The notes under the pieces: generated by a model | What the model saw: the letters and a program-made list of their open reading frames with translations, nothing else | Databases searched by the model: none | What the model was told of the DNA's origin: nothing | Part shown: one piece after another, positions 34,391 to 47,021 of the stretch | Layout of the letters: each line of letters begins with the position of its first letter | Position numbering within the stretch: the first letter of the stretch is position 1 | From: Komagataeibacter intermedius TF2 | GTDB taxonomy: Bacteria; Pseudomonadota; Alphaproteobacteria; Acetobacterales; Acetobacteraceae | Direction of reading: 5' to 3' | Assembly: GCF_000964425.1 (NCBI RefSeq) | Contig: NZ_BANF01000138.1 | Span: forward strand, 1 to 47,021 | Length of the DNA: 47,021 nt | Made by a program: the position numbers and the translations under genes

Positions 34391-35170
34391 TCAGGCAGCG
34401 GGGGTGGCGGATAGCAGCCGGGTCACCAGCTCCAGGTCGGCAGGTTTATCCACATCGACTGCGGCACGCCCGTCCGGCAGGGGAATCATGGCGACCCGCG
34501 CATGCGACAGTTGCCCGATGCGTCGGCAGACATCTGCGCGCGTCAGGCGCCTCAGGATGAACCGCAGCAGGATTCCCGCCCCCAGGGTGCGCGCCATCCT
34601 GAACGGGTGCTTGCGGTCGGCTTCCAGTTTCTGCCACAGCCGGATCACGCCACAGGCGGCAGGCGTGCGGAACAGGAACATGTTGCAGCCCGAAAATGCG
34701 CCATCCGCCAGCCGGATCATGGTGCGTCTGGTACCCGGCACATCGCGCAGGATATCCGGCTCCATCGCGATACCGGCGGCGACGTCACAGCCGCTGTCCT
34801 GCGCCCCCTGCACGAAGGCACGGACCCAGTCGGGCTGCAGCAGGGCATGGTCGGCGGTGGTGACCAGCAGCGGGGTACCCAGTGTGTCCAGCGCCCGCAT
34901 GACACTGGCGCTGGGGCCTGCTGCGGGGGGGATGAAGGTCACATTGTCCGGCACAGCGCCGGACAGCACCTCAGGCCGTTCGATACAGACGGCAATCCTG
35001 CCGATGCCCGCCACTGCCTGCAGGGCCGTAATGACCCGACTGATCATGGGAACGCCGCATACCGGCAGCATGGCCTTGTGGGAAATCCCTGCCGCCTGCG
35101 CCATGGGGTCGGGGCGCCCCGGTCGGCTGCCTGCCAGTATGAGAACATTCAGCCCCATCTGCGCGTTCAC
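34391..35170 (-). CDS. NTP-transferase-like protein, sphingolipid-type locus
   Basis: A 259-residue protein with an NTP-transferase (GT-A-like) fold. The N-terminal LNVLILAGSRPGRPDPMAQAAGISHKAMLPVCGVPM has the G-x-G-x-(R)-x-x-K pattern of the nucleotide loop; LLVTTADHALLQPDWV carries the metal-binding D, and VAMIPLPDGRAAVDVDKPADLELV the closing Asp pair. MobA/IspD/GlmU-type enzymes look like this; the substrate here is unknown. Start is GTG overlapping the hydroxylase stop (GTGA), with an ATG at 35158 as alternative. Its place at the end of the LptF/LptG-like operon suggests that it prepares an activated headgroup precursor, an inference only. Confidence 0.75.
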   Translation of the reverse strand: MNAQMGLNVLILAGSRPGRPDPMAQAAGISHKAMLPVCGVPMISRVITALQAVAGIGRIAVCIERPEVLSGAVPDNVTFIPPAAGPSASVMRALDTLGTPLLVTTADHALLQPDWVRAFVQGAQDSGCDVAAGIAMEPDILRDVPGTRRTMIRLADGAFSGCNMFLFRTPAACGVIRLWQKLEADRKHPFRMARTLGAGILLRFILRRLTRADVCRRIGQLSHARVAMIPLPDGRAAVDVDKPADLELVTRLLSATPAA

Positions 35171-35949
35171 GCCGCGTTACGGGTGGTGTTTGCGCCATCA
35201 GGCCGGTCGCGGGGGGGGGAACCGGTTTCCTCCATCACCCACGGATACTGCTTGGCCTCTTTTACGTCATAACCAAGATTGAACACCGTCGGGCTGCGGG
35301 GGCAGCCACGGGCATCAGTATAATAGCTGCGGAACAGGCGGTCCGCCACAAAGCTGGTAATGCCGTAATTGCCATTTTCGTTATGAAAATGATGCAGCAC
35401 GTGGCGCTGCTTCATCCGCTGGATCCAGCTCATGCGCGGCTTGTAGTTCAGGTGCTGGATGCAGTGGAAGAATTCATAGATGCACGTAATGGTCAGTCCC
35501 GCGCCAAAGGCCGCCGACGCCCCTGCCGCGCCGCCAATGGCGTAACCGATGGGAATGGTGACGATGGCAATCGTGGGAATGGTGTTCAGCGGGGAACCGA
35601 ACAGCACGTCAAGCAGGTGGGGATCCTGGTGATGATCGAAGTGGATGCGCTTCCACAGCGTGGCGCTCCATTTCATGCGATAGAGAAACCGTCCGTGCAG
35701 GATGAAGCGATGAATGGCGTACCACACCAGCGGGTAGACCAGTATGACGGACACGATGCTGATCGCAACCGGTGCCAGCGAGGTGAAATTATAGACCATC
35801 AACGCATAACTGGCGATTGCCAGCGCAAAATACAGCAGGATGGTGGGATAGGTCAGGTAGGCAATCCAGAGCTGACGCAGGTTCATCTTGCCCAGGTCGA
35901 AACTGCGTCCTGTTCGGATGGAACTGTTTTTGAGGGTATTCGTAATCAT
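35167..35949 (-). CDS. Fatty-acid-hydroxylase-superfamily membrane enzyme
   Basis: A 260-residue integral membrane di-iron enzyme. Four or five hydrophobic segments surround the His motifs HRFILHG, HFDHHQDPH, EFFHCIQHL and RHVLHHFHNENGNYG, the eight-histidine pattern of the sterol desaturase/fatty acid hydroxylase superfamily. The HHFHNENGNYGITS ending resembles 2-hydroxylases of ceramide acyl chains, and acetic acid bacteria are known to carry 2-hydroxyacyl sphingolipids, so ceramide hydroxylation is the favoured idea. The ATG at 35949 overlaps the LptG-like stop (ATGA). Nine consecutive G at 35211-35219 (C on the coding strand) fall about 17 codons before the stop. Confidence 0.82.
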   Translation of the reverse strand: MITNTLKNSSIRTGRSFDLGKMNLRQLWIAYLTYPTILLYFALAIASYALMVYNFTSLAPVAISIVSVILVYPLVWYAIHRFILHGRFLYRMKWSATLWKRIHFDHHQDPHLLDVLFGSPLNTIPTIAIVTIPIGYAIGGAAGASAAFGAGLTITCIYEFFHCIQHLNYKPRMSWIQRMKQRHVLHHFHNENGNYGITSFVADRLFRSYYTDARGCPRSPTVFNLGYDVKEAKQYPWVMEETGSPPRDRPDGANTTRNAA

Positions 35950-37055
35950 CGCTCTTCGATCCTCAGTAGCACGGTGATGACGCCAAGGATGAAAATCAGG
36001 ATCCCGACGAATATCGCCATAAGCGAGGGCAATGTTCCCGCATTTCCCAGTGCGCGCAATAGCCCCTGAAATACGATAAATAGCAGGCCCGCGCCCAGAC
36101 ACCAGATTGGCAGCCAACTGCGCGTTCCGGCCCGCGGTGGGATATAGACCACCGGCACGGCCAGTAACAGCATTACCGTGAACGTCACGGGTAACATGAT
36201 GCGTCCCAGTATTTCCGTCAGGAAAAAGGACGGGGACTGGCTGGAAGGCAGCGCGCCACGCTGTTCCTCCAGCATTGTGTTGATGGACTGTGTATAGCTG
36301 ACCGTCAACTGGATGAGGTATTCTGGCGTCAGGGACGCAGGCCAGTCCAGACGTATGCTCTGCCCGGGCGGGGTGTCCAGCAGGTCCACGCGCGTGGGAC
36401 TGACCACGCTGAGGACACGGGTCGGCGTGCCATACCAGCGACCATGGATATAATGCACGTCCGCCAGCGTCGTGACTTTCTGCAGCAGGTTGCGGTGATC
36501 GCGGTGATAGACGGTCACCTGCTTCATCATTGCGCCGCCAGCACTGAGAAAGTTTATGTTTATCAGGTCATTATGAGCCCTGATCCAGTAGTTGCGCCAG
36601 TCATTCGGCGCATTGGGGGACGTGGCGTTCCACCATTGCGCCAGGGCCTGTTCCGTTCTGGGGGTGATCTGGTCATCGACAATGCCGCACAGCACGCCCA
36701 GGGCGATGACGGTAGGCAGCAGCAGCTTGATCAGTCCCGGCGTGGACAGGCCGGCCGCGCGCATGATCGAGATCTCGTTCGAGGTGGTCAGTTGCAGCAG
36801 CGTCAGCAGTGTGCCGATCAGCACGGCAATGGGCATGGCGTTGCCAAACAGCAGCGGCATGTGCATCACCGCGTAGTAAAGCACCCCCGTCAGGCCAAGG
36901 TGGCGGTGCATGATTTCCGTCACCTGCTCCAGCAGCGCGAGGATTTCCATAAGCGCCACCACGATGATGGTGGTTGTCATCACCTTGGACAGCAGTTCAC
37001 GCGACAGATAGCCCAGCAGGACCGTGCCGCTGGCCAGGCGTAGCCGGAATTTCAT
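35946..37055 (-). CDS. LptG-like (YjgP/YjgQ family) permease
   Basis: A 369-residue inner-membrane permease of the LptF/LptG family. MKFRLRLASGTVLLGYLSRELL leads into TM1 (VMTTTIIVVALMEILALLEQV), TM2-3 follow with VLIGTLLTLLQLTTSNEISIMRAAGLS, the conserved coupling-helix region, then a periplasmic jellyroll-like domain (about 140-265) and three more helices with a short tail. In LPS export LptF and LptG span the inner membrane and work with the ATPase LptB2. No lptD, surA, pdxA or lptB is near. Its ATG overlaps the stop of the partner at 37052, and its stop overlaps the hydroxylase start, so it belongs to a lipid-modification operon. Confidence 0.85.
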   Translation of the reverse strand: MKFRLRLASGTVLLGYLSRELLSKVMTTTIIVVALMEILALLEQVTEIMHRHLGLTGVLYYAVMHMPLLFGNAMPIAVLIGTLLTLLQLTTSNEISIMRAAGLSTPGLIKLLLPTVIALGVLCGIVDDQITPRTEQALAQWWNATSPNAPNDWRNYWIRAHNDLININFLSAGGAMMKQVTVYHRDHRNLLQKVTTLADVHYIHGRWYGTPTRVLSVVSPTRVDLLDTPPGQSIRLDWPASLTPEYLIQLTVSYTQSINTMLEEQRGALPSSQSPSFFLTEILGRIMLPVTFTVMLLLAVPVVYIPPRAGTRSWLPIWCLGAGLLFIVFQGLLRALGNAGTLPSLMAIFVGILIFILGVITVLLRIEER

Positions 37056-38284
37056 GCTCCGGCTTCCGTAATGCGGCGCGGCAGTCCATCGGCCGACAGT
37101 TCGCGCGGCGGCAGGGCGGGACCACGGGTCAGCAGGATACGGATGCCACCGGCCTGATGGATCAGCATGCAGATACAGATCACGGCGAACGCCAGCGTGG
37201 GCAGCCAGATCACCAGCAGCGGGGACGTATGCATGTTGGCGACAAAACTCATCCCCATCTGCAGCGTATGGTCAAAGCCGACCAGCGTGATCGCGGCGAT
37301 GGCCAGGCCGGGGTTGCCCTTCTGTCGCTTGCGCACACCGGCCAGCGCACAGGCAAGGATGGGGATGAACGGGATCGCCGCCGTACGGGCCAGACGGAAA
37401 TGCAGTTCGGCAATCATGTAGGAATGGCTGATGGTCGGGTTGCCGTGCCGTATGCCGTAATACAGTTCCGGCACGGTCAGTTCGCGTTCAGTTTCTCCCC
37501 GGCGGCGATAGGCTTCGTCATCCAGCTTGGCTTCAGGGGAAATGAGGCGGGTGGTGCGCGTGAATTCCGTAATGGAGGGAGATTTGTCGGCGCTATCCGT
37601 CACGATCGTGCCATCGACCAGGTCAAGGCGTATCTTCGAGCCATCCGCAGGGATATAGATATACCCTTTCTGTGCAGAAATAAGACGGACATGCGCCTTG
37701 TCCGTCTGGTCACGGATAAAGACATTCCACATGCGTGATCCGGCGTGATCGACCGTTTCAGCGGTCAGCAGGATATTGTCCGATTCCGCGAACATCTTGG
37801 ACTGCAGGTGCGGTGTCCAGCCCGCATGGCTGGCGAAATAGAAGGCCGAGCGGTAATCGTAACGCGCGTATGGCTGTATGAATCCATACAGCGAAAAGGC
37901 CAGAAGGCCGAATATGGCCCCCGTCAGGACAAAAGGCTGGCATATGCGGAAGATCGAGACCCCGCCCGCGGTCAGCGCGTCGATTTCGTGGTTGGCGCTC
38001 ATGCGCCGGATTACGGAAAAGACGCTGACGCACATGGCGGCAGGCAGTGCCAGGCCCAGATAATGGGGCACGAGATCGCTGAGTAGCGCGACGAAGGTTT
38101 TCATCGAACTGCCATTGGCCGCCAGCAGGTCGAACAGGACCAGCAGCCGCTCCAGCAGCAGGGCCGCCATGACCACGCCCAGCGCAATGGCAAAGGGCGG
38201 CACGACCTGGCGCAGCAGGTAGCGGTCCATTGTGTTGGGACTGAGTTTCCCCACAATCCGATGTGGCAAGGACATGCGACTCAT
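37052..38284 (-). CDS. LptF-like (YjgP/YjgQ family) permease
   Basis: A 410-residue LptF/LptG-family permease. MDRYLLRQVVPPFAIALGVVMAALLLERLLVLFDLL is the usual LptF start region (after an extension of about 20 residues from the ATG at 38284); AMCVSVFSVIRRMSANHEIDALTAGGVSIFRI is the coupling region. A large periplasmic domain (about 140-300) precedes three C-terminal helices and a basic tail. It forms an obvious pair with the next gene. The start at 38284 overlaps the metallophosphoesterase stop (ATGA); the frame continues to 38311 without a better signal. A canonical pair for LPS export is expected elsewhere in the genome. Confidence 0.85.
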   Translation of the reverse strand: MSRMSLPHRIVGKLSPNTMDRYLLRQVVPPFAIALGVVMAALLLERLLVLFDLLAANGSSMKTFVALLSDLVPHYLGLALPAAMCVSVFSVIRRMSANHEIDALTAGGVSIFRICQPFVLTGAIFGLLAFSLYGFIQPYARYDYRSAFYFASHAGWTPHLQSKMFAESDNILLTAETVDHAGSRMWNVFIRDQTDKAHVRLISAQKGYIYIPADGSKIRLDLVDGTIVTDSADKSPSITEFTRTTRLISPEAKLDDEAYRRRGETERELTVPELYYGIRHGNPTISHSYMIAELHFRLARTAAIPFIPILACALAGVRKRQKGNPGLAIAAITLVGFDHTLQMGMSFVANMHTSPLLVIWLPTLAFAVICICMLIHQAGGIRILLTRGPALPPRELSADGLPRRITEAGA

Positions 38285-39198
38285 GCAGGCGTGCTTACAC
38301 CGGAACCACACTGTGATGGAGAGGGCAGGTCAAAAATAGTTTCCTGCCCCGTGCCTGTCGTCGCATCCGCCATGAAGAAACGACGCACGACATGCAGGGT
38401 ATAACCCGCGTCATGCGGGGTGATCGAAATACGGTTCCACCCCGCCGCGCGCAGCGGGTTACACGCACGTGCGGAAGCCGATGCGATCCCGACGACCGGC
38501 ACCGGTCCCATGCGACCGGGAAGGGAGGACAGGGTGGATGTATGGGTATGGCCGTGCAGGATCATCTCCGCACCTTCATCTGCGATGCAGGCGTCAAAAT
38601 CCTGTATATCCGTCAGGGCTTTACGGCGTATGGCCAGTCCCGATACCGGCGGATGATGGATCATGATGATGCGGCACAGCCCCTGTCTGCCAGTGTCGCG
38701 CAGGATATTGCGCAGCCGGGCTGCCTGCCGTGCGCCAACGGTTCCGGTCGCCATGAACCATGGTGTAGGCACTGCCGAACTGACCCCGATCAGCGCCACG
38801 TTTCCTACCCGCCGGACGAAGGGAAATGGCAGGGGCCCCATCCACGGCTGCCACAATCCCACGGTCTGGGGCCATCTGTCATACACAAGGGTGTCATGAT
38901 TCCCCGGAATGACTGTGCATGGTGCAGGCATCTGCTCCAGCCAGCGCAGTGCCTGCCTGCATTCTCCCGGCAGGCCCATATTGGTCAGGTCGCCCGTTAC
39001 GGCGATCATGTTGACCGGACAGGTCGCGATATCCGCCATGACCCTGGCCAGGATTTCCGGGCGATGGAGATGGCGGCGGCGGCCTTTCCACGAAAAATAG
39101 CTGAACATGCGCTTGTTGAGTCGTTCCCCCACACGGGGCGGCACCATTTCGGTGGGCAGGTGGGGGTCGGACAAATGCGCGATGGTGATGGTGTTCAA
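38281..39198 (-). CDS. Metallophosphoesterase
   Basis: A 305-residue calcineurin-like phosphoesterase: ITIAHLSDPHLP (D-x-H), MIAVTGDLTNMG (GD), VIPGNHDTL (GNHD), IIMIHHPPV and ILHGHTHTSTL (GH-x-H) make a complete bimetal site. Substrate unknown; phosphodiesters or phosphorylated lipid intermediates are candidates from context. The likely start is TTG at 39198 with AAAGAGG five bases upstream; the ATG at 39279 would add 27 residues with no family similarity. It is the first gene of the five-gene unit and is divergent from the lipid kinase across 159 bp, which must hold the two promoters. Confidence 0.85.
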   Translation of the reverse strand: MNTITIAHLSDPHLPTEMVPPRVGERLNKRMFSYFSWKGRRRHLHRPEILARVMADIATCPVNMIAVTGDLTNMGLPGECRQALRWLEQMPAPCTVIPGNHDTLVYDRWPQTVGLWQPWMGPLPFPFVRRVGNVALIGVSSAVPTPWFMATGTVGARQAARLRNILRDTGRQGLCRIIMIHHPPVSGLAIRRKALTDIQDFDACIADEGAEMILHGHTHTSTLSSLPGRMGPVPVVGIASASARACNPLRAAGWNRISITPHDAGYTLHVVRRFFMADATTGTGQETIFDLPSPSQCGSGVSTPA

Positions 39199-39357
39199 GC
39201 TGACCTCTTTCCTTGCCTCATGCCTGCCGGTAACGCTGTCGGCATGTGTTATGGCTGCGTGCGCGGGAGGGCGCTCCATCTTTTCGTGCCTTGCAATAGA
39301 AGGCAGATGGTTGCTTATGGCCTGTAAGTCAAATTTCAGACAGGGATGGAATGATCA

Positions 39358-40338
39358 GTGACCGGACGATTTGCGCTTGTTTATAACCCGCGCAGCCGGC
39401 GGAACATGGGCGACAGGAGCTTATACGCCCAGACAGCCCGTGATCTGCTGGGAGAAAACTTCGTTGATCCGGCTGACCGTTCCCGTCTGGATGCCAATAT
39501 TGCGGAATTCGCGTCACGCGGGACCGATTGCATTGTCATAGATGGAGGGGACGGGACCGTCAGTGACGTCCTGACCGCCATACACCGGCATTATCCATCG
39601 GACAGGCTGCCTGCCCTGGCTATCCTGCCATCCGGCAATACCAACCTGATTGCGGGGGATGTCGGTTTCGGGCTGCGGGGCATCAGGGCGCTGGAACACC
39701 TGCAGCGGCTTGATGCGTCGGGCCTGTTGCGTCGGAACGTGCGCCGGCGCTGCGGGCTGGTTGTGGAATGGCCGGAACCCGATGGTCGCGCGCCCGTCGT
39801 GGGCATGTTCCATGGGGCGGCCGCGTTTACGCGCGGCATCGAACTGGCCCACCAGCCAGCCATCCTGAACAATTATTCACATGAAATGGCGGTCGTCGTC
39901 TCGTTCCTGTCATCGGTAGCGCATCTGCTGACGCGGCGGTCCCGGCAGGAATGGATGCGCGGCAACGCGCTTGTCATGCGGGCCGGGGCGCGCATTCAGC
40001 GTCAGGGCAACTGCTTCCTGTTCCTGTCAACGACGCTCCAGCATCTGCCCCACGGCATATGGCCGTTCTGGACCGCGCCTGGCGCGCGTGATGACGTCAT
40101 CAACTTCCTTCATGTCGCAGGCCAGCCGTCGCGACTGGCGGCGGCGGCATGGGCGCTGCTGCGGGGGCGACACCCGGCATGGCTGCGACAGAATCCAGAT
40201 TATTGCAGCGGGTGTGAAGACCGTATTGAAATGCTGCTGGAATCCGATTTCGTGCTGGATGGGGAGGTGTTCTCACCCGGTCCCGCTGGCCGGATCGTGC
40301 TGTCCGCGACTGCCCCGATAGATTTTATTCACGCGTAA
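39358..40338 (+). CDS. LCB5 / diacylglycerol-kinase-family lipid kinase
   Basis: A 326-residue kinase homologous to sphingosine, ceramide and diacylglycerol kinases. FALVYNPRSRRNMG opens the catalytic domain; IDGGDGTVSDVL (GGDGT at 63-67) is the ATP loop, and LAILPSGNTNLIAGDVGFG is the next nucleotide-binding segment. The C-terminal half gives a lid domain ending FSPGPAGRIVLSATAPIDFIHA. In this neighbourhood ceramide or a long-chain base is the likeliest substrate; a similar kinase is part of Caulobacter's anionic sphingolipid pathway. Start is GTG at 39358 after GGAATGATCA. The next gene follows with a 12-bp gap. Confidence 0.88.
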   Translation: MTGRFALVYNPRSRRNMGDRSLYAQTARDLLGENFVDPADRSRLDANIAEFASRGTDCIVIDGGDGTVSDVLTAIHRHYPSDRLPALAILPSGNTNLIAGDVGFGLRGIRALEHLQRLDASGLLRRNVRRRCGLVVEWPEPDGRAPVVGMFHGAAAFTRGIELAHQPAILNNYSHEMAVVVSFLSSVAHLLTRRSRQEWMRGNALVMRAGARIQRQGNCFLFLSTTLQHLPHGIWPFWTAPGARDDVINFLHVAGQPSRLAAAAWALLRGRHPAWLRQNPDYCSGCEDRIEMLLESDFVLDGEVFSPGPAGRIVLSATAPIDFIHA

Positions 40339-40350
40339 GGAAGGGTGACC

Positions 40351-41319
40351 ATGCCCCAGTCCAGTCCTTCAGACCGTACTGCCGCAGCCGGTCGGGTCGC
40401 CCGCCTGCTGGCCCATGATCTGGTTCAGCCGGTCGCCCCCTTTGTGAGCGGGTTTGTGACGCGCCTGCTGGGCGGGACGCAGCCACTGGGCGTGATTTTT
40501 TATGGTTCCACCCTGCGCACGCCAGACCCGGAAGGCATTCTGGATTTCTATGTGATTGTTGAACGGCTGGAAGACTGGACTGCTGGTACGCTGTCGCGTG
40601 AAGCCAACCGTATCCTGCCGCCCAATGTGGAATATCACGAAATTACGATTGAGGGACGCATCATCCGGGCCAAGGTGGCGATCCTGTCGATTGCACAGTT
40701 CCGGCGCATGACAGGGCGCGCCACGCTGGATACGACGGTCTGGGCACGCTTCTGCCAGCCCGTGCGACTGGTATGGGTAAGGGGGCCGGAGGCGGCGGAT
40801 GCCATTCTGGCCTGCATCATCCGTGCGGTGGCACAGGCCGGGCGTTGGGCTGCGGTACTTGGTCCTGCGCACGGGACGGCGGATAAATACTGGCTGGCCC
40901 TGTTTGCGCATACCTATGGCGCGGAACTGCGTGTCGAGAACGGACGCAGGCCGAAGAGCCTGCTGCAGGGGCAGGAGACGCGGTACAGGACCCTGTTACC
41001 CGATATATGGCGGGCCGATGGCCTGCCCTTTACATGCACGGGGGATGAACTGTCGCCCAGGCTGACACCAGAACTGCGTCAGACCATGCGTAAAGGCTGG
41101 TGGCTGCGCGGCCGCCTGGGCCGTGTGCTGAATGTCAGCCGCCTGTTCAAGGCCGCCTTCACGTTTGAAGGCGGGGCACGCTATATCGCGTGGAAGATCA
41201 GGCGCCATTCCGGGATTGAACTGCCACTGGGGCCGTTTTCGGAACGGCATCCGCTTATCTGCCTGCCGTATCTGTTATGGAAGCTACGGCAGGCAGGTTT
41301 TTTCAGGCGGCGCGATTGA
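40351..41319 (+). CDS. Tam41-like phosphatidate-cytidylyltransferase homologue
   Basis: A 322-residue protein that I relate to Tam41/Mmp37, the nucleotidyltransferase-fold CDP-diacylglycerol synthase of mitochondria. The N-terminal third has IFYGSTLRTPDPEGILDFYVIVE (YGS at 51-53, then D65-F) as in the Tam41 metal site. EGRIIRAKVAILSIAQFRRM followed by FCQPVRLVWVRGPEAADAIL parallels the Tam41 central region. A basic C-terminal half with ARYIAWKIRRHSG may lie on the membrane. By analogy it would use CTP to activate a lipid phosphate. It follows the lipid kinase by 12 bp with a strong GGAAGGG site and overlaps the convergent SPT gene by 17 bp. Confidence 0.65.
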   Translation: MPQSSPSDRTAAAGRVARLLAHDLVQPVAPFVSGFVTRLLGGTQPLGVIFYGSTLRTPDPEGILDFYVIVERLEDWTAGTLSREANRILPPNVEYHEITIEGRIIRAKVAILSIAQFRRMTGRATLDTTVWARFCQPVRLVWVRGPEAADAILACIIRAVAQAGRWAAVLGPAHGTADKYWLALFAHTYGAELRVENGRRPKSLLQGQETRYRTLLPDIWRADGLPFTCTGDELSPRLTPELRQTMRKGWWLRGRLGRVLNVSRLFKAAFTFEGGARYIAWKIRRHSGIELPLGPFSERHPLICLPYLLWKLRQAGFFRRRD

Positions 41320-42505
41320 TACCCATCTCGCCCGCCACTACGGCGAAGATCTCGACCGCCCTGTCTATCTGCTCCGGCGTGTGCGTCGCCATGACGGACG
41401 TCCGCAGCAGCGGATGCTGGTCAGGCGTTGCGGGCGGCAGGCTGAGGTTGACGTAAACCCCCAGATCCAGCAGTCGGTTCCAGAATGCAACCGCAACCGC
41501 CACATCATCCAGAATGACGGACACGACAGGGCTGGCCTGGGGGCCGGTGCGCAGCCCGGCAGCCTGCAGTCCGGCATGAAGCCTGCGGGCGTTATCCATA
41601 AGCCGCACACGCAATTCGGGCCTGTTCTCCAGTTCCGTCAGTGCTGCCATGGTCGCAGCGATGACTTCTGGCGGCAGGGACGCCGTGAACATGTAGGGAC
41701 GCGAACACAGCCGGATCAGGTCCAGCCCGTCATGATTGGACACACAGTAACCGCCAACCGTGCCAAGGCTTTTTGAGAAGGTGCCGACAACGAAATCGAC
41801 ATCATCCTCCACCCCGTCGGCTTCCGCCACGCCACGGCCATGTTCGCCCATTACACCAACGGAATGCGCTTCATCCGCCAGCAGCCACGCACCGGTTTCC
41901 CGCTTGACGGCCGCGAATTCCGCCATGGGCACGACATCGCCCATCATGGAATAGATGCCTTCAACCACGATCAGCTTCGATCCCGGCGTTCCTTCAAGGC
42001 GGCGCAGGCGTTTATGCAGGTCATCGGCGTCGTTATGACGGAAGCGGATGACCTGTGCATGGCCAAGGCGGCTGCCATCGTAAATGCTGGCATGACTGTC
42101 GGCATCGAGCAGGAGGTAGTCGTCCTTGCCCGCAAGCGCGGAAATCGTGCCCAGATTGGCCTGGTACCCGGTGGAAAACACCATGCAGTGCCGGCGGCGG
42201 AAGAAGGCGCACAGCCGTTCCTCCAGCTGACGGTGCAGCCCCTGCGTGCCGTTGGCGATGCGCGAACCGGTCGTGCCGACACCATACGCCCTGACAGCGT
42301 CCACTGCGGCTTCGATCGCGGCGGGGGACTGGCTCAGCCCGAGATAGTTGTTTGTACCGAACAGAAGCGTCTCACGTCCTTCGATCAGCCCGACCGTGGA
42401 GGAAATGGGCTTTTCGATCACGACGTTGAAAGGATTGCGTCCGCCGCCAGCCGTCACGGCCGACAGGGCGGACGCGAGACCTTCATATTTCGAGAAAATT
42501 GACAT
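41303..42505 (-). CDS. spt: Serine palmitoyltransferase (alpha-oxoamine synthase)
   Basis: PLP enzyme condensing L-serine with an acyl thioester to give 3-ketosphinganine, the first step of sphingolipid synthesis. The 400 residues show NNYLGLSQSP, DADSHASIYDG (PLP-stacking His138), LADEAHSVGVMG (Asp211) and VVGTFSKSLGTVGGY (Schiff-base Lys245). The family also contains KAPA synthase (BioF) and ALA synthase; assignment as SPT rests on the G-T-F-S-K-S motif form and on the adjoining ACP, acyl-activating enzyme and lipid kinase genes. It lies 6 bp downstream of the dedicated ACP gene. Confidence 0.85.
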   Translation of the reverse strand: MSIFSKYEGLASALSAVTAGGGRNPFNVVIEKPISSTVGLIEGRETLLFGTNNYLGLSQSPAAIEAAVDAVRAYGVGTTGSRIANGTQGLHRQLEERLCAFFRRRHCMVFSTGYQANLGTISALAGKDDYLLLDADSHASIYDGSRLGHAQVIRFRHNDADDLHKRLRRLEGTPGSKLIVVEGIYSMMGDVVPMAEFAAVKRETGAWLLADEAHSVGVMGEHGRGVAEADGVEDDVDFVVGTFSKSLGTVGGYCVSNHDGLDLIRLCSRPYMFTASLPPEVIAATMAALTELENRPELRVRLMDNARRLHAGLQAAGLRTGPQASPVVSVILDDVAVAVAFWNRLLDLGVYVNLSLPPATPDQHPLLRTSVMATHTPEQIDRAVEIFAVVAGEMGINRAA

Positions 42506-42511
42506 GGTGTA

Positions 42512-42763
42512 TCAGGATGCCTGCTTGAGAGAGACGATGCAGGCCGCCAGATCATCAATCGTGCGGATATCCGCCAGCCGGTCAAGCGGCACGGAAACGT
42601 CGAGGGTGTCCTCGATTTCCATGACAAAATTCATGACGGCCAGTGAATCAAAGGCCAGATCTTCAACGATCTTGCTGCTGCCATTGATATCACGGGGAAC
42701 CTTGGGGTTCGCCAGCAGCGTCTTCACGATCAGCGCGGAGACGCTCGCTACCGTTTCACTCAT
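42512..42763 (-). CDS. Dedicated acyl carrier protein for the sphingolipid locus
   Basis: An 83-residue ACP with phosphopantetheine Ser40 in LAFDSLAVMNFVMEIEDTLDV. It is clearly distinct from the fatty-acid-synthesis AcpP at 29422 ([10 protein letters not shown]). Caulobacter's ceramide cluster has an equivalent special ACP (AcpR) beside SPT and an acyl-ACP synthetase, and this arrangement matches. It probably carries the acyl chain handed to SPT or to a ceramide synthase. A 199-bp gap with no recognised gene separates it from the acyl-activating enzyme upstream; that gap holds a GGAGCC/GGCTCC stem at 42941-42956. Confidence 0.85.
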   Translation of the reverse strand: MSETVASVSALIVKTLLANPKVPRDINGSSKIVEDLAFDSLAVMNFVMEIEDTLDVSVPLDRLADIRTIDDLAACIVSLKQAS

Positions 42764-42962
42764 TCCTACATCCTTATGGCATGTCCTGCCTGCTTACAGG
42801 CAGGGGATCAGCATGAATGGCCTGCCCCACGATCCATGACCGGGGGAGCGGGGACTGCAATCGGTCCCCTGATCGGAAGTCTTATGATCGAAAAACAGGT
42901 TTTTGGCCAGTCCTGCTTTACAGTCTTGCCCGACCGGGCGGGAGCCGTGCGGCTCCGCTCCA

Positions 42963-44759
42963 TCAGGCCACGGAAACCGATGATGTTTCCAGCGGCTGGA
43001 ACGCACCCGACAGCAGCATGGCCTTCGCGCGCGCGCGCGTCAGCTTGCCCGAGGACGTCTGCGGCAGCGTATGGGGCGGCACCAGAATGACGGAGACATC
43101 CACCCCGTGCTGCCGGCGGAACAGGCTGGCTGTTTCGGTTTTAAGTGTTTCACGCGCTTCTGGGGAGGAGGCGCGGCACTGGACCAGTGCTACGATTTTT
43201 TCGCCTTCATCCTCATCAACCGAAAAAACAGCGACATCGCGGCTGCGCAGGCTGCTGATTTCGGTCTCGGCAGACCATTCCAGATCCTGCGGCCAGATAT
43301 TGCGGCCGTTGATGATGATCAGGTCCTTGGCGCGGCCGGTTATGACAACCTGCCCATCCAGCATATATCCCAGATCGCCGGTATTCAGCCAGCCATTGGC
43401 ATCCACCACGCGGGCGGTTTCCTGCGGGCGGCGGAAATATCCCTGCATCAGGCTGGGACCGCGTACGAATACGGCCCCGATCTGGCGGTCATGCAGCACG
43501 TTGCCCTGCGGGTCGCGTACTTCCAGTTCATGGCGCGGCAGGACTTCACCGCAGATGACAAAGGTGCGCAGGGCGCGTGTGGGATCATTGGAAGGAATGG
43601 CTTCCCCCCGCGTTTCAAGCGCGCGCAGGTCGATCGTATCCGTCCGGATGCCCGAACCCAGCGGCGCGAAACTGATGGCCAGCGTGGCTTCAGCCATGCC
43701 GTAGCTGGCGGTAAATGCGCCGCTGTCAAACCCGACCGATGCAAAGCGCTGGGCAAAATCCTCAAGGATATGATAGCGGATCATGTCACCGCCAATACCC
43801 GCCACGCGCCATGATGACAGGTCAAGCTCGATCGAGGTGGCGCGACGTGCGCACAGTTCATAGCCAAAGGACGGGCTGTAGGAAATTGTGCCACGATTAC
43901 GGCTGATCAGGTCCAGCCAGACATGCGGGCGCCGCGCGAATTCGCGGGTGGGCAGCATGTCGACGCTCAGCTGGCAAGTCATGGGGGTCAGGAAAAACCC
44001 CACCAGACCCATGTCGTGATAAAGCGGAAGCCATGAGACGCAGCGGTCGCCCGTTTCACGGACTTTCAGGCCGTTCAGGGCGATGGCATGGGCATTTGCC
44101 ATGCCGGAACGCTGGGTGACCGCGATTCCCATGGGGAAACGGGTGCTGCCCGAGGAAAACTGCAGATAGGACAGGTCATCAGGCTGGACCGCCGGCAGCG
44201 TTTCGACCGTAATGGGCGTTTCCAGCAGTTCAGCTGGCGTGCCGGAGAATTTCAGATCCAGCCCGGCGGTGATTTCATCCGTCCATGATGAAATGATGGA
44301 GGCGATGACCACGGCGGAGGCCGCAGCCCCTTCGATCATTCCACGCAGCGTACCCACATAACCTTCACGCCCGCCAAATGCGACAGGTAACGGCAGGGGG
44401 GCAGGAACAAGGCCCGCATACTGGCAGCCAAAGAAAATACGGGCGAAATCCCCATCGCTTTCGGCGACGATGGCGACACGGTCACCCGGCTCCAGACCCA
44501 GGGACAGCAGGCGCCTGCCGGTCTCGATCGCCTGCGCGCGCAACGTGCTGTACGGCAGCGTTTCGAGCAGTACGCCCTTGCCAGAGTAAATATTGAAACC
44601 GCTCTTGCCCTGTGCGGCATAATCCAGCGCTGCCGGGAACGTCGGAAAATCGCCGTAACGACGCGGCAAACCAGAATCGGAGGGGGTCGGGAGGCTTATC
44701 ATTTCCGGTAATGTGACTTCCACAGACGTAACTTGAAACGGCGAATGGGCGGTGTTCAA
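42963..44759 (-). CDS. Acyl-ACP synthetase / fatty acyl-AMP ligase
   Basis: A 598-residue acyl-adenylate-forming enzyme. LQFSSGSTRFPMGIAVTQ is the P-loop-like A3 motif, SYGMAEATLAISFAP is A5, NTGDLGYMLDGQVVITGRAKDLII is A7-A8, and LPQTSSGKLTRARAK is A10 with the catalytic Lys. The set, and a neighbouring ACP, point to activation of a fatty acid and loading on that ACP, as AasR does in Caulobacter. The start is TTG at 44759, sharing bases with the upstream stop (TTGA) and preceded by GAGGG; an ATG at 44702 is an alternative. It is translationally coupled to the glycerophosphotransferase-like gene. Confidence 0.88.
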   Translation of the reverse strand: MNTAHSPFQVTSVEVTLPEMISLPTPSDSGLPRRYGDFPTFPAALDYAAQGKSGFNIYSGKGVLLETLPYSTLRAQAIETGRRLLSLGLEPGDRVAIVAESDGDFARIFFGCQYAGLVPAPLPLPVAFGGREGYVGTLRGMIEGAAASAVVIASIISSWTDEITAGLDLKFSGTPAELLETPITVETLPAVQPDDLSYLQFSSGSTRFPMGIAVTQRSGMANAHAIALNGLKVRETGDRCVSWLPLYHDMGLVGFFLTPMTCQLSVDMLPTREFARRPHVWLDLISRNRGTISYSPSFGYELCARRATSIELDLSSWRVAGIGGDMIRYHILEDFAQRFASVGFDSGAFTASYGMAEATLAISFAPLGSGIRTDTIDLRALETRGEAIPSNDPTRALRTFVICGEVLPRHELEVRDPQGNVLHDRQIGAVFVRGPSLMQGYFRRPQETARVVDANGWLNTGDLGYMLDGQVVITGRAKDLIIINGRNIWPQDLEWSAETEISSLRSRDVAVFSVDEDEGEKIVALVQCRASSPEARETLKTETASLFRRQHGVDVSVILVPPHTLPQTSSGKLTRARAKAMLLSGAFQPLETSSVSVA

Positions 44760-45889
44760 CCAATTACCCTCAAAAAGTCAATAATCGATTTCGCGCCTTT
44801 GGCCGCCGTATCTTCCGGAGCCGCAAACCCGAACGTATCGCGTATATACTCTTTTTGTCGATCAAGGAAATTTGCATGCGTGAGGAAGGCCCTGTCAAGG
44901 GTGGGGGCGAAGTCATCCATGCCTGCAACAACAGGGCCAAGGGTCCAGTTTTCATAATTCGGGTCGCCACGCCATTGTACCCGATGTGCATTCAGAAAGA
45001 CGCAGGGGCGCGGTTTTGTCAGGAATTCGCTGACCTGGCTGCTGACATCTCCAAGATACAGGTCTGCTGCCAGCGTATAGCTCATATCCACGCTGCGGTC
45101 GCTGCCTGGATCAATGATCATATGCGGGTACATCCCATATCGCGCCAGTATGTCATCACTTTTGAGGCGATGGGTATCAAATAAACGGTAATGCGGCGCG
45201 AAGATCAGGTTGTATTTTTTCTGTTGGGCAAAATGATCAAGAATTGCCGTGCCAAACCGGTGCCATGATGACAGACGCGGACTAAAATGGGGATTGTAGA
45301 GAATGGTCGGGCGGATATTGGGGAATAATGGCGAACCATGGGCGTGCAGTCGACGCACCATGTCGAATTTTGCATATATTCCAGTGGCATAATGGCCGGG
45401 GCGTAAAACGCCAGCCCGGTTCAGTCGTTCCTCTATCTTGTGTCCCGCCATAAGAATGAAATCGAACTGCCGCGTATCATGGGTGAATCCAATGGCCCGG
45501 TCACCTGCACCGTGACGGGTCCAGATCAGGCGGGGGGAAGAGACGCCCATTTTGCGTAAATACAGCGATGTACGTTCCGGTACGACAATCGCCTGAAATC
45601 TGTTGAAATAATTTCTGTTCAGCAAAAGGACTGCCATTTTACCCAGAGGGGTCTGTCCGTGCTGTCTGATATGGTGCCGGAGCCACCGGGGCATCTGCAA
45701 AATATCGAAGATGACCGAAGATTCGGGGTACAATTTGCAAAGAGCGCGGATACGGGAGTCGCGTTCCGGGGTCAGGCTGGCAATATGAACCTTAATTTCC
45801 GGATAAAGCCGCGCCATTTCCAATGCGATTGGAAGTGAATGGAATTCCTGATGCGGCTGGGCAATATAGGGAAACAGGATATGAAGCAT
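44756..45889 (-). CDS. CDP-glycerol glycerophosphotransferase-like enzyme
   Basis: A 377-residue protein with the TagB/TagF glycerophosphotransferase layout: RLIWTRHGAGDRAIGF (acceptor-side His-Gly), FDFILMAGHKIEERL, TILYNPHFSPRLSSW, NLIFAPHYRLFD, then SVDMSYTLAADLYLGDVSSQVSEFLTK, which is the D-x-S-S-x-x-x-E nucleotide-binding helix, and PCVFLNAH. Such enzymes transfer glycerol phosphate from CDP-glycerol, and the relatives of known sugar/alditol-phosphate transferases share the fold, so a related headgroup donor is possible. The ATG at 45889 (MLHILFPYIAQPHQEF) is chosen; the 80 residues further upstream lack family character. The gene is visibly less GC-rich than its neighbours, hinting at recent acquisition. 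Confidence 0.7.
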   Translation of the reverse strand: MLHILFPYIAQPHQEFHSLPIALEMARLYPEIKVHIASLTPERDSRIRALCKLYPESSVIFDILQMPRWLRHHIRQHGQTPLGKMAVLLLNRNYFNRFQAIVVPERTSLYLRKMGVSSPRLIWTRHGAGDRAIGFTHDTRQFDFILMAGHKIEERLNRAGVLRPGHYATGIYAKFDMVRRLHAHGSPLFPNIRPTILYNPHFSPRLSSWHRFGTAILDHFAQQKKYNLIFAPHYRLFDTHRLKSDDILARYGMYPHMIIDPGSDRSVDMSYTLAADLYLGDVSSQVSEFLTKPRPCVFLNAHRVQWRGDPNYENWTLGPVVAGMDDFAPTLDRAFLTHANFLDRQKEYIRDTFGFAAPEDTAAKGAKSIIDFLRVIG

Positions 45890-46145
45890 TTGCGGTTGGC
45901 CTGGTGATCCTTGGTAGACCGTGCCATGGGAAAATATCTCATCAGAATTTACAATAAATTTAAGGAAATAACACTGTGATATATTGTATATGAATCCTGT
46001 ATATTCATGAACCCGTCTTGGGATTATCTCATGTTCTTTTGAAATACATGGGTAATGAAGAAGGGGGGATGGCTCCCTCCTGTATGGCCTGTTCCCTTGG
46101 GCGGATTGAAACGCCCAGCGTGCCGACACATGCGTAGGGGGGCGG
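45890..46145 (-). promoter_or_regulatory. AT-rich upstream region of the leftward sphingolipid unit
   Basis: The 256 bp before the glycerophosphotransferase-like gene have no recognised gene. The first ~130 bp are very AT-rich (TTTACAATAAATTTAAGG, TATATTGTATATGAATCC), as expected of a promoter region for unit 3. I cannot fix a -10/-35 pair. From about 46146 the sequence becomes IS-derived. Confidence 0.5.
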
Positions 46146-46351
46146 GACCTGCCGACGTATTTCGGGTATTGGAACTCGGTTTTCCCGCGCTACAGTGACT
46201 GGGCGAAAGCCGGTGTTTTCCAGAAAATTTTTGAGGTCGTCTCTGATGATCCCAACATGGAATATGCGATGATTGACGGCACGGCGGTGCGGGTTCATCT
46301 CCATGGTCAGGACGCAAAAGATGAGGGCGGAAAACAGGCGATAGGACGCAG
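46146..46351 (+). pseudogene. IS5-family transposase fragment (central part)
   Basis: A rightward frame reads RDLPTYFGYWNSVFPRYSDW, then AKAGVFQKIFEVV, NMEYAMIDGTAVRVHLHGQD and QAIGRS, a stretch of an IS5-family DDE transposase that includes the first catalytic Asp (MIDGT). The start and end of the gene are missing: an in-frame stop lies about 40 bp upstream, and at 46351 the sequence switches to an opposite-strand fragment. Confidence 0.8.
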
Positions 46352-46746
46352 CTTCACGCCGATCCCCGGCCAGCATTACAGCGGCGATTTCATCCAGGAG
46401 AGGCCCTGCTTCAGTAATGTTGGCCCTTTGCCCGGGTGTCAGGGAAAGAGCTACGGTCTTGCCCGCAGCATCGATAACGGTGTGGATTTTCGTGGTCAGT
46501 CCGACACGGGACCGTCCGATGGCCTGATCTGTGGTCCTTTTTAACGGGCGTCCGCACTATGACTGGTGAGCACGAACAATCGTGCTGTCGATACATTATG
46601 TAGCCATTGGCGTGATCGGCGGCCTGATGCCGGAAAATCCATTCGATACGGTTATCCGCAGTCGTGCCTTCGACATGACCGTCACGATCAGGGAGAAAAT
46701 CCTTTATCCGCTCCCGCTGGCTGTCACTCAGGTCATGCCGTCGCAT
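46352..46746 (-). pseudogene. IS5-family transposase fragment (N-terminal and central parts)
   Basis: Leftward remnant of an IS5-family transposase. It starts MRRHDLSDSQRERIKDFLP and continues to about TTADNR, then skips a stretch (internal deletion) to FRHQAADHANGYIM. The frame then shifts to IDSTIVRAHQ, meets a stop, and resumes as DQAIGRSRVGLTTKIHTVID and VALSLTPGQRANITEAGPLL. It ends abruptly at about 46352 against the rightward fragment. With a deletion, a frameshift, a stop and no C-terminus it cannot be active. Confidence 0.8.
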
Positions 46747-47021
46747 CCACGTCTCTCCCCGTTCCAAAAACACGGATCAGACGGAAGTGCAGGCATCATG
46801 CACATCATACGCTAACTGGCGACACGCCCAGACTGCCGACGGAGACTGGCGGAGGTGGTATCGGAGGACAGGTTAATCCTTATGTCATGGTATCCGGTGA
46901 CCTGTCCTGACTGTCACGATAATGATCGTGCCTCGAACAGCGACGAAAATCGTATCTGAACATTTTGACCATATATGCCGACTGATTCCGGCGATCGGGA
47001 CTGTTTATGAGGAAAGGAGGG
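46747..47021. other. Window end beside the IS remnant, no gene recognised
   Basis: About 275 bp without a supported gene. It contains a CACGAT/ATCGTG inverted repeat with a 4-nt loop at 46915-46930. The terminal inverted repeat of the IS could lie here, but I cannot identify it. Confidence 0.4.

What the first reader, a model, noticed from the sequence alone, without database searches (positions are those of the whole stretch)
34391..45889. Sphingolipid-type locus in three interlocked transcription units
Seen: SPT-like enzyme (41303), dedicated ACP (42512), acyl-activating enzyme (42963), lipid kinase (39358), Tam41-like protein (40351), hydroxylase (35167), two LptF/LptG-like permeases, a metallophosphoesterase, a nucleotidyltransferase and a glycerophosphotransferase-like enzyme, all within 11.5 kb. 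Known: Caulobacter makes ceramides with SPT, AcpR, an acyl-ACP synthetase, a ceramide reductase and a bacterial ceramide synthase, and acetic acid bacteria contain hydroxylated dihydroceramides. Inference: this locus makes, decorates and exports a phospho-sphingolipid. The reductase and synthase are absent from the window, so they must be encoded elsewhere or replaced.
Basis: partly seen in the sequence, partly recalled or inferred. Interest (0 to 1): 0.85.

Follow-up and report, generated by a model that had tools for sequence, protein, structure and literature searches.

The report
Vinegar bacteria's rewired sphingolipid pathway
This stretch of a vinegar bacterium's DNA is a gene set for making, decorating and exporting sphingolipids; the usual bacterial ceramide reductase was not found in it or in the rest of the genome, and comparison of related genomes points to a different reductase, sitting beside the ceramide synthase gene elsewhere, as its replacement.

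Summary
The locus is real. It is the acetic-acid-bacterium form of the known Caulobacter phosphosphingolipid cluster: SPT, AcpR, AasR, a ceramide-kinase-like protein, a Tam41-fold protein, a metallophosphoesterase, a MobA-like nucleotidyltransferase, LptF/LptG paralogues, an SCS7-like hydroxylase and a TagF-fold protein. The three core genes are in print for Gluconobacter oxydans.

The ceramide synthase (bCerS) lies elsewhere in the same genome. No CerR was found. Instead a classical short-chain dehydrogenase (SDR) is divergently paired with bCerS. In 64 SPT-positive Acetobacteraceae genomes, 19 have CerR, 42 have the bCerS-paired SDR, none has both, and 3 have neither arrangement. SDR-linked bCerS form their own clade, while SPT rejects a single SDR clade. 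A plasmid and three genomes carry SPT-like–SDR–bCerS together. The NDUFA9-like relative of CerR is in 133 of 136 SPT-negative genomes and is missing from 16 SDR-type ones.

I infer that the SDR replaces CerR and that synthase and reductase travel as a matched pair. Whether reduction precedes acylation, the eukaryotic order, is not shown. No biochemistry was done. New variant of a known kind.

The parts
34391..35170 (-). MobA/CofC-like nucleotidyltransferase (NTP; CC_1153-like by description)
   Evidence: PF12804 E 3e-16; 50% identity to the nucleotidyltransferase next to bCerS in the Roseomonas marmotae cluster
35167..35949 (-). Fatty acid hydroxylase (SCS7-like), start corrected
   Evidence: PF04116; only PDB matches up to E 0.1 are yeast SCS7, best E 6e-5; ATGA overlap; neighbour of bCerS in 11 of the 21 surveyed loci that hold bCerS
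35946..37055 (-). LptG2, LptG-type permease paralogue
   Evidence: PF03739; NCBIfam LptG 183.7 bits, below cut-off 240
37052..38311 (-). LptF2, LptF-type permease paralogue
   Evidence: PF03739; NCBIfam LptF 187.1 bits, below cut-off 230
38281..39279 (-). Metallophosphoesterase (MPE)
   Evidence: PF00149; 43% identity to the Roseomonas cluster's metallophosphoesterase
39358..40338 (+). Lipid (ceramide) kinase-like protein (CC_1160-like by description)
   Evidence: PF00781 DAGK_cat; 36% identity to the Roseomonas cluster kinase
40351..41319 (+). Tam41-fold nucleotidyltransferase, possible CDP-ceramide synthase (CC_1161-like by description)
   Evidence: AlphaFold model pLDDT 92; Foldseek ranks 1-5 all Tam41; 45% identity to the Roseomonas cluster's counterpart
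41303..42505 (-). Serine palmitoyltransferase (SPT)
   Evidence: NF047599 644.7 bits, cut-off 500; TFSKSLG with K245 (that this is the PLP lysine is recalled)
42512..42763 (-). Dedicated acyl carrier protein (AcpR)
   Evidence: PF00550; DSL serine 40; present in all 59 SDR- and CerR-type loci examined
42963..44759 (-). Fatty acyl-AMP/acyl-ACP ligase (AasR)
   Evidence: NCBIfam PRK09192 896 bits, cut-off 600
44756..45889 (-). TagF-fold (CDP-glycerol glycerophosphotransferase-like) GT-B protein
   Evidence: no Pfam/NCBIfam hit; AlphaFold pLDDT 88, Foldseek rank 1 TagF 3l7j E 1.4e-10; found in 26 of 40 SDR-type loci and 1 of 19 CerR-type loci

Best explanation
The window (a Komagataeibacter genome) holds the acetic-acid-bacterium version of the Caulobacter-type sphingolipid locus. 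AasR loads a fatty acid onto AcpR, and SPT condenses it with serine to 3-ketosphinganine. The two ceramide-finishing enzymes are encoded as a divergent pair elsewhere in the genome: bCerS (N-acyltransferase, G000:C934:7347-8507) and, in place of CerR, a classical SDR (G000:C934:6393-7190) that reduces the 3-keto group. The FA hydroxylase then 2-hydroxylates the N-acyl chain; the kinase makes ceramide-1-phosphate; the Tam41-fold enzyme activates it with CTP; the nucleotidyltransferase, phosphoesterase and TagF-fold enzyme build a phospho-headgroup; and LptF2/LptG2 move the lipid toward the outer membrane. Shown here: gene content, co-occurrence, mutual exclusion of CerR and SDR, coupling of the SDR with its own bCerS clade, and folds. 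Inferred: every catalytic step and the identity of the product.
For: Locus. bCerS in the own genome E 1.4e-62. No CerR in the own genome: the best hit to a 20-row CerR profile is an NDUFA9-like protein beside gltBD (E 2e-33), the next HpnA in a hopanoid operon (E 2e-19), against E 5e-91 or better in the 22 of 200 genomes that pass as CerR-positive. SDR: of 64 SPT-positive genomes among 200, CerR in 19, bCerS-adjacent divergent SDR in 42 (gaps over all 46 adjacent pairs 79-565 bp), both in 0, neither arrangement in 3. 26 of 26 named Komagataeibacter/Novacetimonas/Gluconacetobacter/Nguyenibacter loci have the divergent pair. G056 carries LptG2, LptF2, MPE, CK, Tam41, SPT', SDR and bCerS in one stretch; G010 and G105 carry SPT'-SDR-bCerS. 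Acidisoma sp. PAMC 29798 plasmid: bCerS, SDR, PLP enzyme, sterol desaturase, glycosyltransferase. bCerS tree: 32 SDR-type rows in one clade, SH-aLRT 99. SPT tree: one clade for the 40 SDR-type rows rejected, p-AU 1e-6. N121, S149, Y162 and K166 (the SDR tetrad, recalled) conserved in at least 95% of 32 rows.
Against: No enzyme activity or lipid was measured. Most SDR-type genomes form one clade, so independent events are few (2 changes on the SPT tree when other families are counted as CerR and G021 is left out; plus the SPT'-bearing lineages). G021 fits neither class: its bCerS is of the CerR-linked type and its SDR-like ORF is only 43% identical. G123 has the SDR on another contig than bCerS. 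11 of 57 genomes with an SDR hit have it away from bCerS, and a Novosphingobium plasmid has a 52% identical SDR beside a sterol desaturase with no SPT or bCerS annotated in the 20.7 kb fetched. In CerR-positive G059 (not among the 64) a distant SDR, 27% identical, lies next to CerR. Only 11-13 best candidates per genome were scored. Of 15 profile matches in the own genome, only the NDUFA9-like and HpnA proteins were looked into. None of the 25 NCBIfam models shown for the SDR (of 191 hit) is a ketosphinganine reductase, and comparison with Tsc10, FVT1 or BT_0972 was not made. The NDUFA9-like protein is present in the own genome and in 26 of 42 SDR-type genomes.
Confidence: 0.8

Rival explanations
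1. The CerR role is filled by the NDUFA9-like NAD-dependent epimerase/dehydratase relative; the SDR beside bCerS does something else.
For: PMC9386255 (section 13 read) assigns an epi homologue (GOX1849) in Gluconobacter oxydans, apart from the spt genes; PMC11087976 says CerR is homologous to NDUFA9; the NDUFA9-like protein is the best CerR-profile hit in the own genome.
Against: It is near-universal, 133 of 136 SPT-negative genomes and 19 of 19 CerR- and SPT-positive ones, so it looks housekeeping. 16 of 42 SDR-type SPT-positive genomes have neither it (E 1e-40, 10 or fewer candidates scored per genome) nor CerR. It lies beside gltBD in the own genome, and it does not explain the SDR/CerR exclusion. 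I did not identify GOX1849 by sequence.
Confidence: 0.12
2. The SDR does replace CerR, but acts after acylation on oxidised ceramide, so the order is the same as proposed for Caulobacter.
For: In Caulobacter a cerR deletion accumulates oxidised ceramide (PMC11087976 Discussion); nothing in the sequence fixes the order. The CerR proteins also lack an obvious N-terminal signal by simple hydropathy, so location cannot be read off.
Against: The SDR comes with its own bCerS clade, which is easiest to explain if the acyl acceptor changed from 3-ketosphinganine to sphinganine. Distant SDRs of this family (38-41%) also lie next to SPT-like enzymes in three other genomes with no bCerS hit in the fetched stretch.
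Confidence: 0.4
3. The PLP enzyme is a biotin (KAPA) or other alpha-oxoamine synthase and the locus is not a sphingolipid locus.
For: SPT and BioF are homologous; bioF model 332.8 bits.
Against: Below the bioF cut-off and above the SPT cut-off; two other family members in the genome; with AcpR in 59 of 59 and AasR in 56 of 59 SDR- and CerR-type loci, and with ceramide-decorating genes in most SDR-type loci.
Confidence: 0.02

Closest known systems
Caulobacter crescentus CC_1152-CC_1168 phosphosphingolipid (CPG/CPG2) cluster (PMC11324152)
   Same: spt, acpR, aasR, lipid kinase, CDP-DAG-synthase-like protein, phosphoesterase, CofC-like nucleotidyltransferase and second LptF/LptG in one region (by the paper's description)
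   Different: cerR and cerS absent from the locus; no CDP-alcohol phosphatidyltransferase (CC_1159-like) and no cytidylyltransferase (CC_1152-like) at the locus; has an SCS7-like hydroxylase and a TagF-fold protein
Gluconobacter oxydans 621H GOX2056-2058 with GOX2417 and GOX1849 (PMC9386255)
   Same: spt-acpR-aasR together, acyltransferase (aca) elsewhere in the genome
   Different: the paper names an epimerase-type reductase (GOX1849); the data here point to an SDR paired with bCerS in this clade. The GOX genes themselves were not examined
Bacteroides thetaiotaomicron BT_0972 3-ketosphinganine reductase (PMC9278070)
   Same: a classical SDR as bacterial sphingoid-base reductase
   Different: BT_0972 is reported not to cluster with SPT; here the SDR is paired with bCerS and excludes CerR. 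No sequence comparison was made
CerR-type cluster on Roseomonas marmotae plasmid p1318-4
   Same: same decoration and export genes in one stretch
   Different: has CerR, CerR-type bCerS, CDP-alcohol phosphatidyltransferase and phosphocholine cytidylyltransferase

Membership tests
Rhodobacterial ceramide pathway (Spt, AcpR, AasR, bCerS, CerR) | SPT with adjacent specialised ACP and acyl-ACP synthetase | tested here: met
Rhodobacterial ceramide pathway (Spt, AcpR, AasR, bCerS, CerR) | bCerS acyltransferase in the genome | tested here: met
   G000:C934:7392-8495, E 1.4e-62 to the E. coli BL21 YghO homologue
Rhodobacterial ceramide pathway (Spt, AcpR, AasR, bCerS, CerR) | CerR in the genome | tested here: not met
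   best profile hits are NDUFA9-like (E 2e-33) and HpnA (E 2e-19); the 13 weaker match lines were not looked into; draft genome, 943 contigs, listed as 100% complete
Caulobacter-type CPG/CPG2 locus | ceramide kinase, CDP-DAG-synthase-like protein, second LptF/LptG | tested here: met
   kinase and Tam41-like orthology through the Roseomonas cluster, not by direct comparison with Caulobacter sequences
Caulobacter-type CPG/CPG2 locus | CDP-alcohol phosphatidyltransferase (CC_1159-like) and cytidylyltransferase (CC_1152-like) | tested here: not met
   no hit at E 1e-6 in the window or any fetched SDR-type SPT locus; the rest of the own genome was not searched for them
Caulobacter-type CPG/CPG2 locus | makes ceramide phosphoglycerate | not testable with these tools
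   needs lipidomics
3-ketosphinganine reductase (KDSR) role for the SDR | classical SDR domain and catalytic tetrad | tested here: met
   PF00106 E 1e-33; N121, S149, Y162, K166 in at least 95% of 32 rows (tetrad recalled)
3-ketosphinganine reductase (KDSR) role for the SDR | genetic link to SPT/bCerS | tested here: met
3-ketosphinganine reductase (KDSR) role for the SDR | reduces 3-ketosphinganine | not testable with these tools
   needs an enzyme assay
3-ketosphinganine reductase (KDSR) role for the SDR | homology closer to Tsc10/FVT1/BT_0972 than to other SDRs | not tested
   those sequences were not fetched
Tam41 CDP-DAG synthase | Tam41 fold | tested here: met
   Foldseek ranks 1-5, E 1e-8 to 4e-7, TM about 0.5-0.6; no meaningful sequence-level hit
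TagF glycerophosphotransferase | GT-B fold like TagF | tested here: inconclusive
   rank 1 but TM about 0.6, and UDP-GlcNAc 2-epimerases and other glycosyltransferases score nearly as well; no meaningful sequence-level hit
SCS7/FA2H N-acyl 2-hydroxylase | PF04116 with sequence match to SCS7 | tested here: inconclusive
   SCS7 is the only PDB match, E 6e-5; comparison with C4-hydroxylases (Sur2) not made

The most novel reading that the evidence does not exclude
Acetic acid bacteria (and lineages that acquired the cassette) make ceramide in the eukaryotic order: an SDR reduces 3-ketosphinganine first, and a distinct clade of bCerS, inherited and transferred as a matched pair with it, acylates sphinganine. 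The reductase-acyltransferase pair is thus a swappable module that resets the order of the pathway, while SPT and the decoration/export genes stay.
Probability: 0.45. Interest if true: 0.75.

Novelty: new variant of a known kind. Interest (0 to 1): 0.6.

Why it matters
The order of acylation and reduction in bacterial ceramide synthesis is disputed, and CerR is described as periplasmic with an unexplained electron source (PMC11087976, Discussion read). [quoted passage not shown] A clade of food bacteria that lacks CerR and pairs bCerS with an SDR gives a natural comparison: one deletion plus LC-MS tells whether the ketone is reduced before or after acylation. Surveys that count producers by Spt, bCerS and CerR together (as PMC11334938 describes an earlier study, passages read) could miss such genomes. 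PMC11334938 itself raises replacement of CerR and bCerS by non-homologous proteins as a possibility for Cloacimonadota; here a concrete candidate is named for another group. It also supplies a matched enzyme pair for making ceramides in microbes.

Tried and rejected
Tried with little or no result: PDB sequence search for the kinase (only YegS/DAGK/BmrU-type), the TagF-fold protein (nothing meaningful) and the Tam41-like protein (nothing meaningful). Literature on the head group and exact ceramide of acetic acid bacteria: only reviews naming ceramide in Acetobacter (passages). The first E. coli region, L007, missed the spt cluster and was followed by L008.

Considered and rejected: KAPA synthase; HpnA as reductase (487 bits to the HpnA model, inside a hopanoid operon); the NDUFA9-like protein as the dedicated reductase. 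G126 looked like co-decay of the pathway with the SDR, but its IMPase is broken too, so sequence quality cannot be excluded and I drew nothing from it. The Fisher test (p 2e-14) is not relied on: the genomes are related, and its table counted G123 as SDR and G021 and G126 as neither.

Rows dropped: the SPT tree leaves out G126 and the unfetched G136, G158 and G170. The bCerS tree holds 31 of the 46 SDR-adjacent genomes plus G123; the others were not fetched; one partial CerR-type row (L070) fell below the length limit. G021 was labelled SDR by default in both trees and is treated as undetermined here. Locus survey: 61 of 64 SPT-positive genomes plus 14 from other families; several loci are cut by contig ends, so counts of neighbours are lower bounds.

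Full report
What was checked. The window is the whole of contig C806 of a 3.88 Mb draft genome in 943 contigs. The closest named bCerS is from Komagataeibacter oboediens, 98-99% identical, so the host is a Komagataeibacter. The second is weaker, since UDP-GlcNAc 2-epimerases and other glycosyltransferases score nearly as well as TagF.

What it is. The gene set matches the Caulobacter phosphosphingolipid region described in PMC11324152 (abstract, section 8 part 1, sections 9 and 13 and passages read). There, kinase CC_1160 and the CDP-DAG-synthase-like CC_1161 are needed for CPG; CC_1159, CC_1158, CC_1153 and CC_1152 for efficient CPG2 formation; and second LptF/LptG copies are suggested to export the lipid. 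Caulobacter sequences were not fetched; the gene-by-gene bridge is the annotated Roseomonas marmotae plasmid cluster. Its kinase, Tam41-like protein, phosphoesterase and nucleotidyltransferase are 36-50% identical to the window's, while its CDP-alcohol phosphatidyltransferase, phosphocholine cytidylyltransferase and flippase have no hit in the window. The first two have no hit in any fetched SDR-type SPT locus either; flippase relatives do occur in some of them. By the published logic this locus would support a CPG-like lipid but not Caulobacter's CPG2; the TagF-fold protein could build a different head group. That is inference. PMC9386255 (section 13 and passages read) already lists spt, acpR and aasR of Gluconobacter oxydans, with the acyltransferase GOX2417 and the epimerase homologue GOX1849 elsewhere.

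Survey. 64 of 200 Acetobacteraceae genomes have SPT at E 1e-100 or better. I mapped 61 of these 64 loci plus 14 from other families. In 40 loci of the SDR type, ACP is present in 40, AasR in 39, CK and Tam41 in 35, FAH in 34, MPE, LptF2, LptG2 and NTP in 33, and the TagF-fold gene in 26. 31 of 40 have all of CK, Tam41, MPE, LptF2, LptG2, FAH and NTP. In 19 CerR-type loci CK, Tam41, MPE and FAH are each in 8, and LptF/LptG-like genes in 11. In 11 of the 21 surveyed loci that hold bCerS, the hydroxylase is its neighbour, which supports action on the ceramide. The only PDB matches of the hydroxylase are yeast SCS7.

The missing enzymes. bCerS is at G000:C934:7347-8507. CerR is not found. The two best profile hits are an NDUFA9-like protein next to gltBD (gene names read from the sequence) and HpnA, which passes its own NCBIfam cut-off and lies in a hopanoid operon; weaker hits were not looked into. 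Next to bCerS, divergently and 156 bp away, is a classical SDR. Across the 64 SPT-positive genomes: bCerS 64 of 64, CerR 19, divergent bCerS-adjacent SDR 42, both 0, neither arrangement 3 (G021, G123, G126). G123 has the SDR on another contig; G126 has many broken genes, including an unrelated one; G021 is undetermined. None of the 22 CerR-positive genomes has an SDR hit at E 1e-35, though only the best 13 candidates per genome were scored; CerR-positive G059 has a distant SDR, 27% identical, beside CerR. Of all 57 genomes with an SDR hit, 46 have the divergent pair and 11 do not. In the named collection 26 of 26 loci show the divergent pair. A search of 5.8 billion proteins (best 120 of 827 listed) finds SDR relatives annotated in Komagataeibacter, Acetobacter, Gluconobacter, Gluconacetobacter, Novacetimonas, Swingsia and Acidisoma, and a few in Sphingomonas and Novosphingobium.

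Independent contexts. Four genomes have the SDR-bCerS pair without an SPT at E 1e-100. In three of them (G010, G105, G056) a different SPT-like enzyme sits beside the SDR; in the fourth (G132) the contig ends just beyond the SDR. In G056 the stretch reads LptG2, LptF2, a DUF2141-like ORF, MPE, CK, Tam41, SPT', SDR, bCerS, so the SDR lies inside a sphingolipid cluster. G181, of the same genus, has the CerR type. The Acidisoma sp. PAMC 29798 plasmid has bCerS, SDR, the same SPT' family, a sterol desaturase family protein and glycosyltransferases in a row. SPT' passes no SPT cut-off, so its activity is open. On a Novosphingobium plasmid the SDR adjoins a sterol desaturase family protein without annotated SPT or bCerS nearby. 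In three more genomes (G096, G178, G006) a 38-41% identical SDR adjoins an SPT-like enzyme; in G096 the next gene is a polyketide synthase, in the other two the long neighbouring ORFs were not classified.

Trees (quick method, SH-aLRT). bCerS: 32 SDR-type rows form one clade (support 99, stem 0.61), including G001, G056, G132, G010 and G105. SPT: 39 SDR-type rows form one clade, but G001 lies among CerR-type rows, and holding all 40 together is rejected (p-AU 1e-6). So reductase type follows bCerS type, not SPT. The simplest reading is that SDR and bCerS move as a matched pair.

The published alternative. CerR is homologous to NDUFA9 (PMC11087976, abstract and Discussion read), so an NDUFA9-like protein could be taken for CerR. 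That protein is in 180 of 200 genomes, 133 of 136 without SPT, and is missing (E 1e-40) from 16 of 42 SDR-type genomes that also lack CerR. It looks housekeeping. I did not identify GOX1849 by sequence.

Order of steps. The coupling of the SDR to its own bCerS clade suggests that the acyl acceptor changed to sphinganine. The sequence does not prove this; simple hydropathy shows no clear signal peptide in 9 SDRs or 20 CerRs, although CerR is reported periplasmic in Caulobacter. That acetic acid bacteria contain ceramide is taken from reviews (passages).

Print status. I found no paper naming this SDR as a sphingolipid reductase or reporting CerR absence in acetic acid bacteria in searches. These cover only the open-licence library; for broad queries I saw only the top of the listing (25 of 1,343, 15 of 885).

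Noticed in passing
L196 7882-15282, 6494-7885, 5706-6494 (minus); L198 5095-12483 with the AONS and bCerS-like genes of L175 (same contig): Other Acetobacteraceae carry a polyketide synthase (about 2460 aa: KS-AT-DH-ER-KR-ACP) followed by an SPT-like oxoamine synthase and either an SDR of this family (L196) or a bCerS-like protein (L198/L175), a logic like fungal sphinganine-analogue loci (recalled). A FemAB-like gene lies near the L196 set. L176, L178, L180 and L181 hold similar pairs beside long ORFs that were not classified..
   Followed up: partly
L008 4283-9886 (E. coli BL21(DE3), NC_012971): BL21(DE3) carries a full yghO-aas-cerR-acp-spt cluster. PMC9278070 used BL21 as a host on the ground that E. 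coli lacks native sphingolipid synthesis (passages read); worth checking in reductase assays.
   Followed up: no
window 46130-47021 and contig end; L010, L020: The contig ends about 4.5 kb upstream of spt, and many related drafts break at a similar distance; in L010 and L020 a 23S rRNA match lies in the fetched stretch, none in L028, so an rRNA operon probably flanks the locus.
   Followed up: partly
L015-L018, L021, L023, L028, L031, L033, L035, L036 upstream of the TagF-fold gene: A flippase-like gene ('lipopolysaccharide biosynthesis protein' homologue) sits upstream in 11 of 40 SDR-type loci but not in the window.
   Followed up: no
L066, L184 (genome G126): SPT, kinase, LptF2, bCerS and SDR are all broken into pieces, but so is an unrelated IMPase: genome decay or poor sequence.
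   Followed up: no
L065 (genome G021): SPT locus with CerR-type bCerS but no CerR at E 1e-45; a weak epimerase-like ORF and a 43% SDR-like ORF lie nearby. Reductase undetermined.
   Followed up: partly
G025:C1, G079:C1, G037:C9 SPT matches: Three of the 64 SPT matches are flagged with one stop codon inside the matched stretch; whether it is at the end or within the gene was not checked.
   Followed up: no
18 SPT-negative genomes with a bCerS-like hit (G005, G011, G015, G016 and others): Besides the four SDR-paired ones, most are 28-35% relatives, several beside another SPT-like oxoamine synthase.
   Followed up: no
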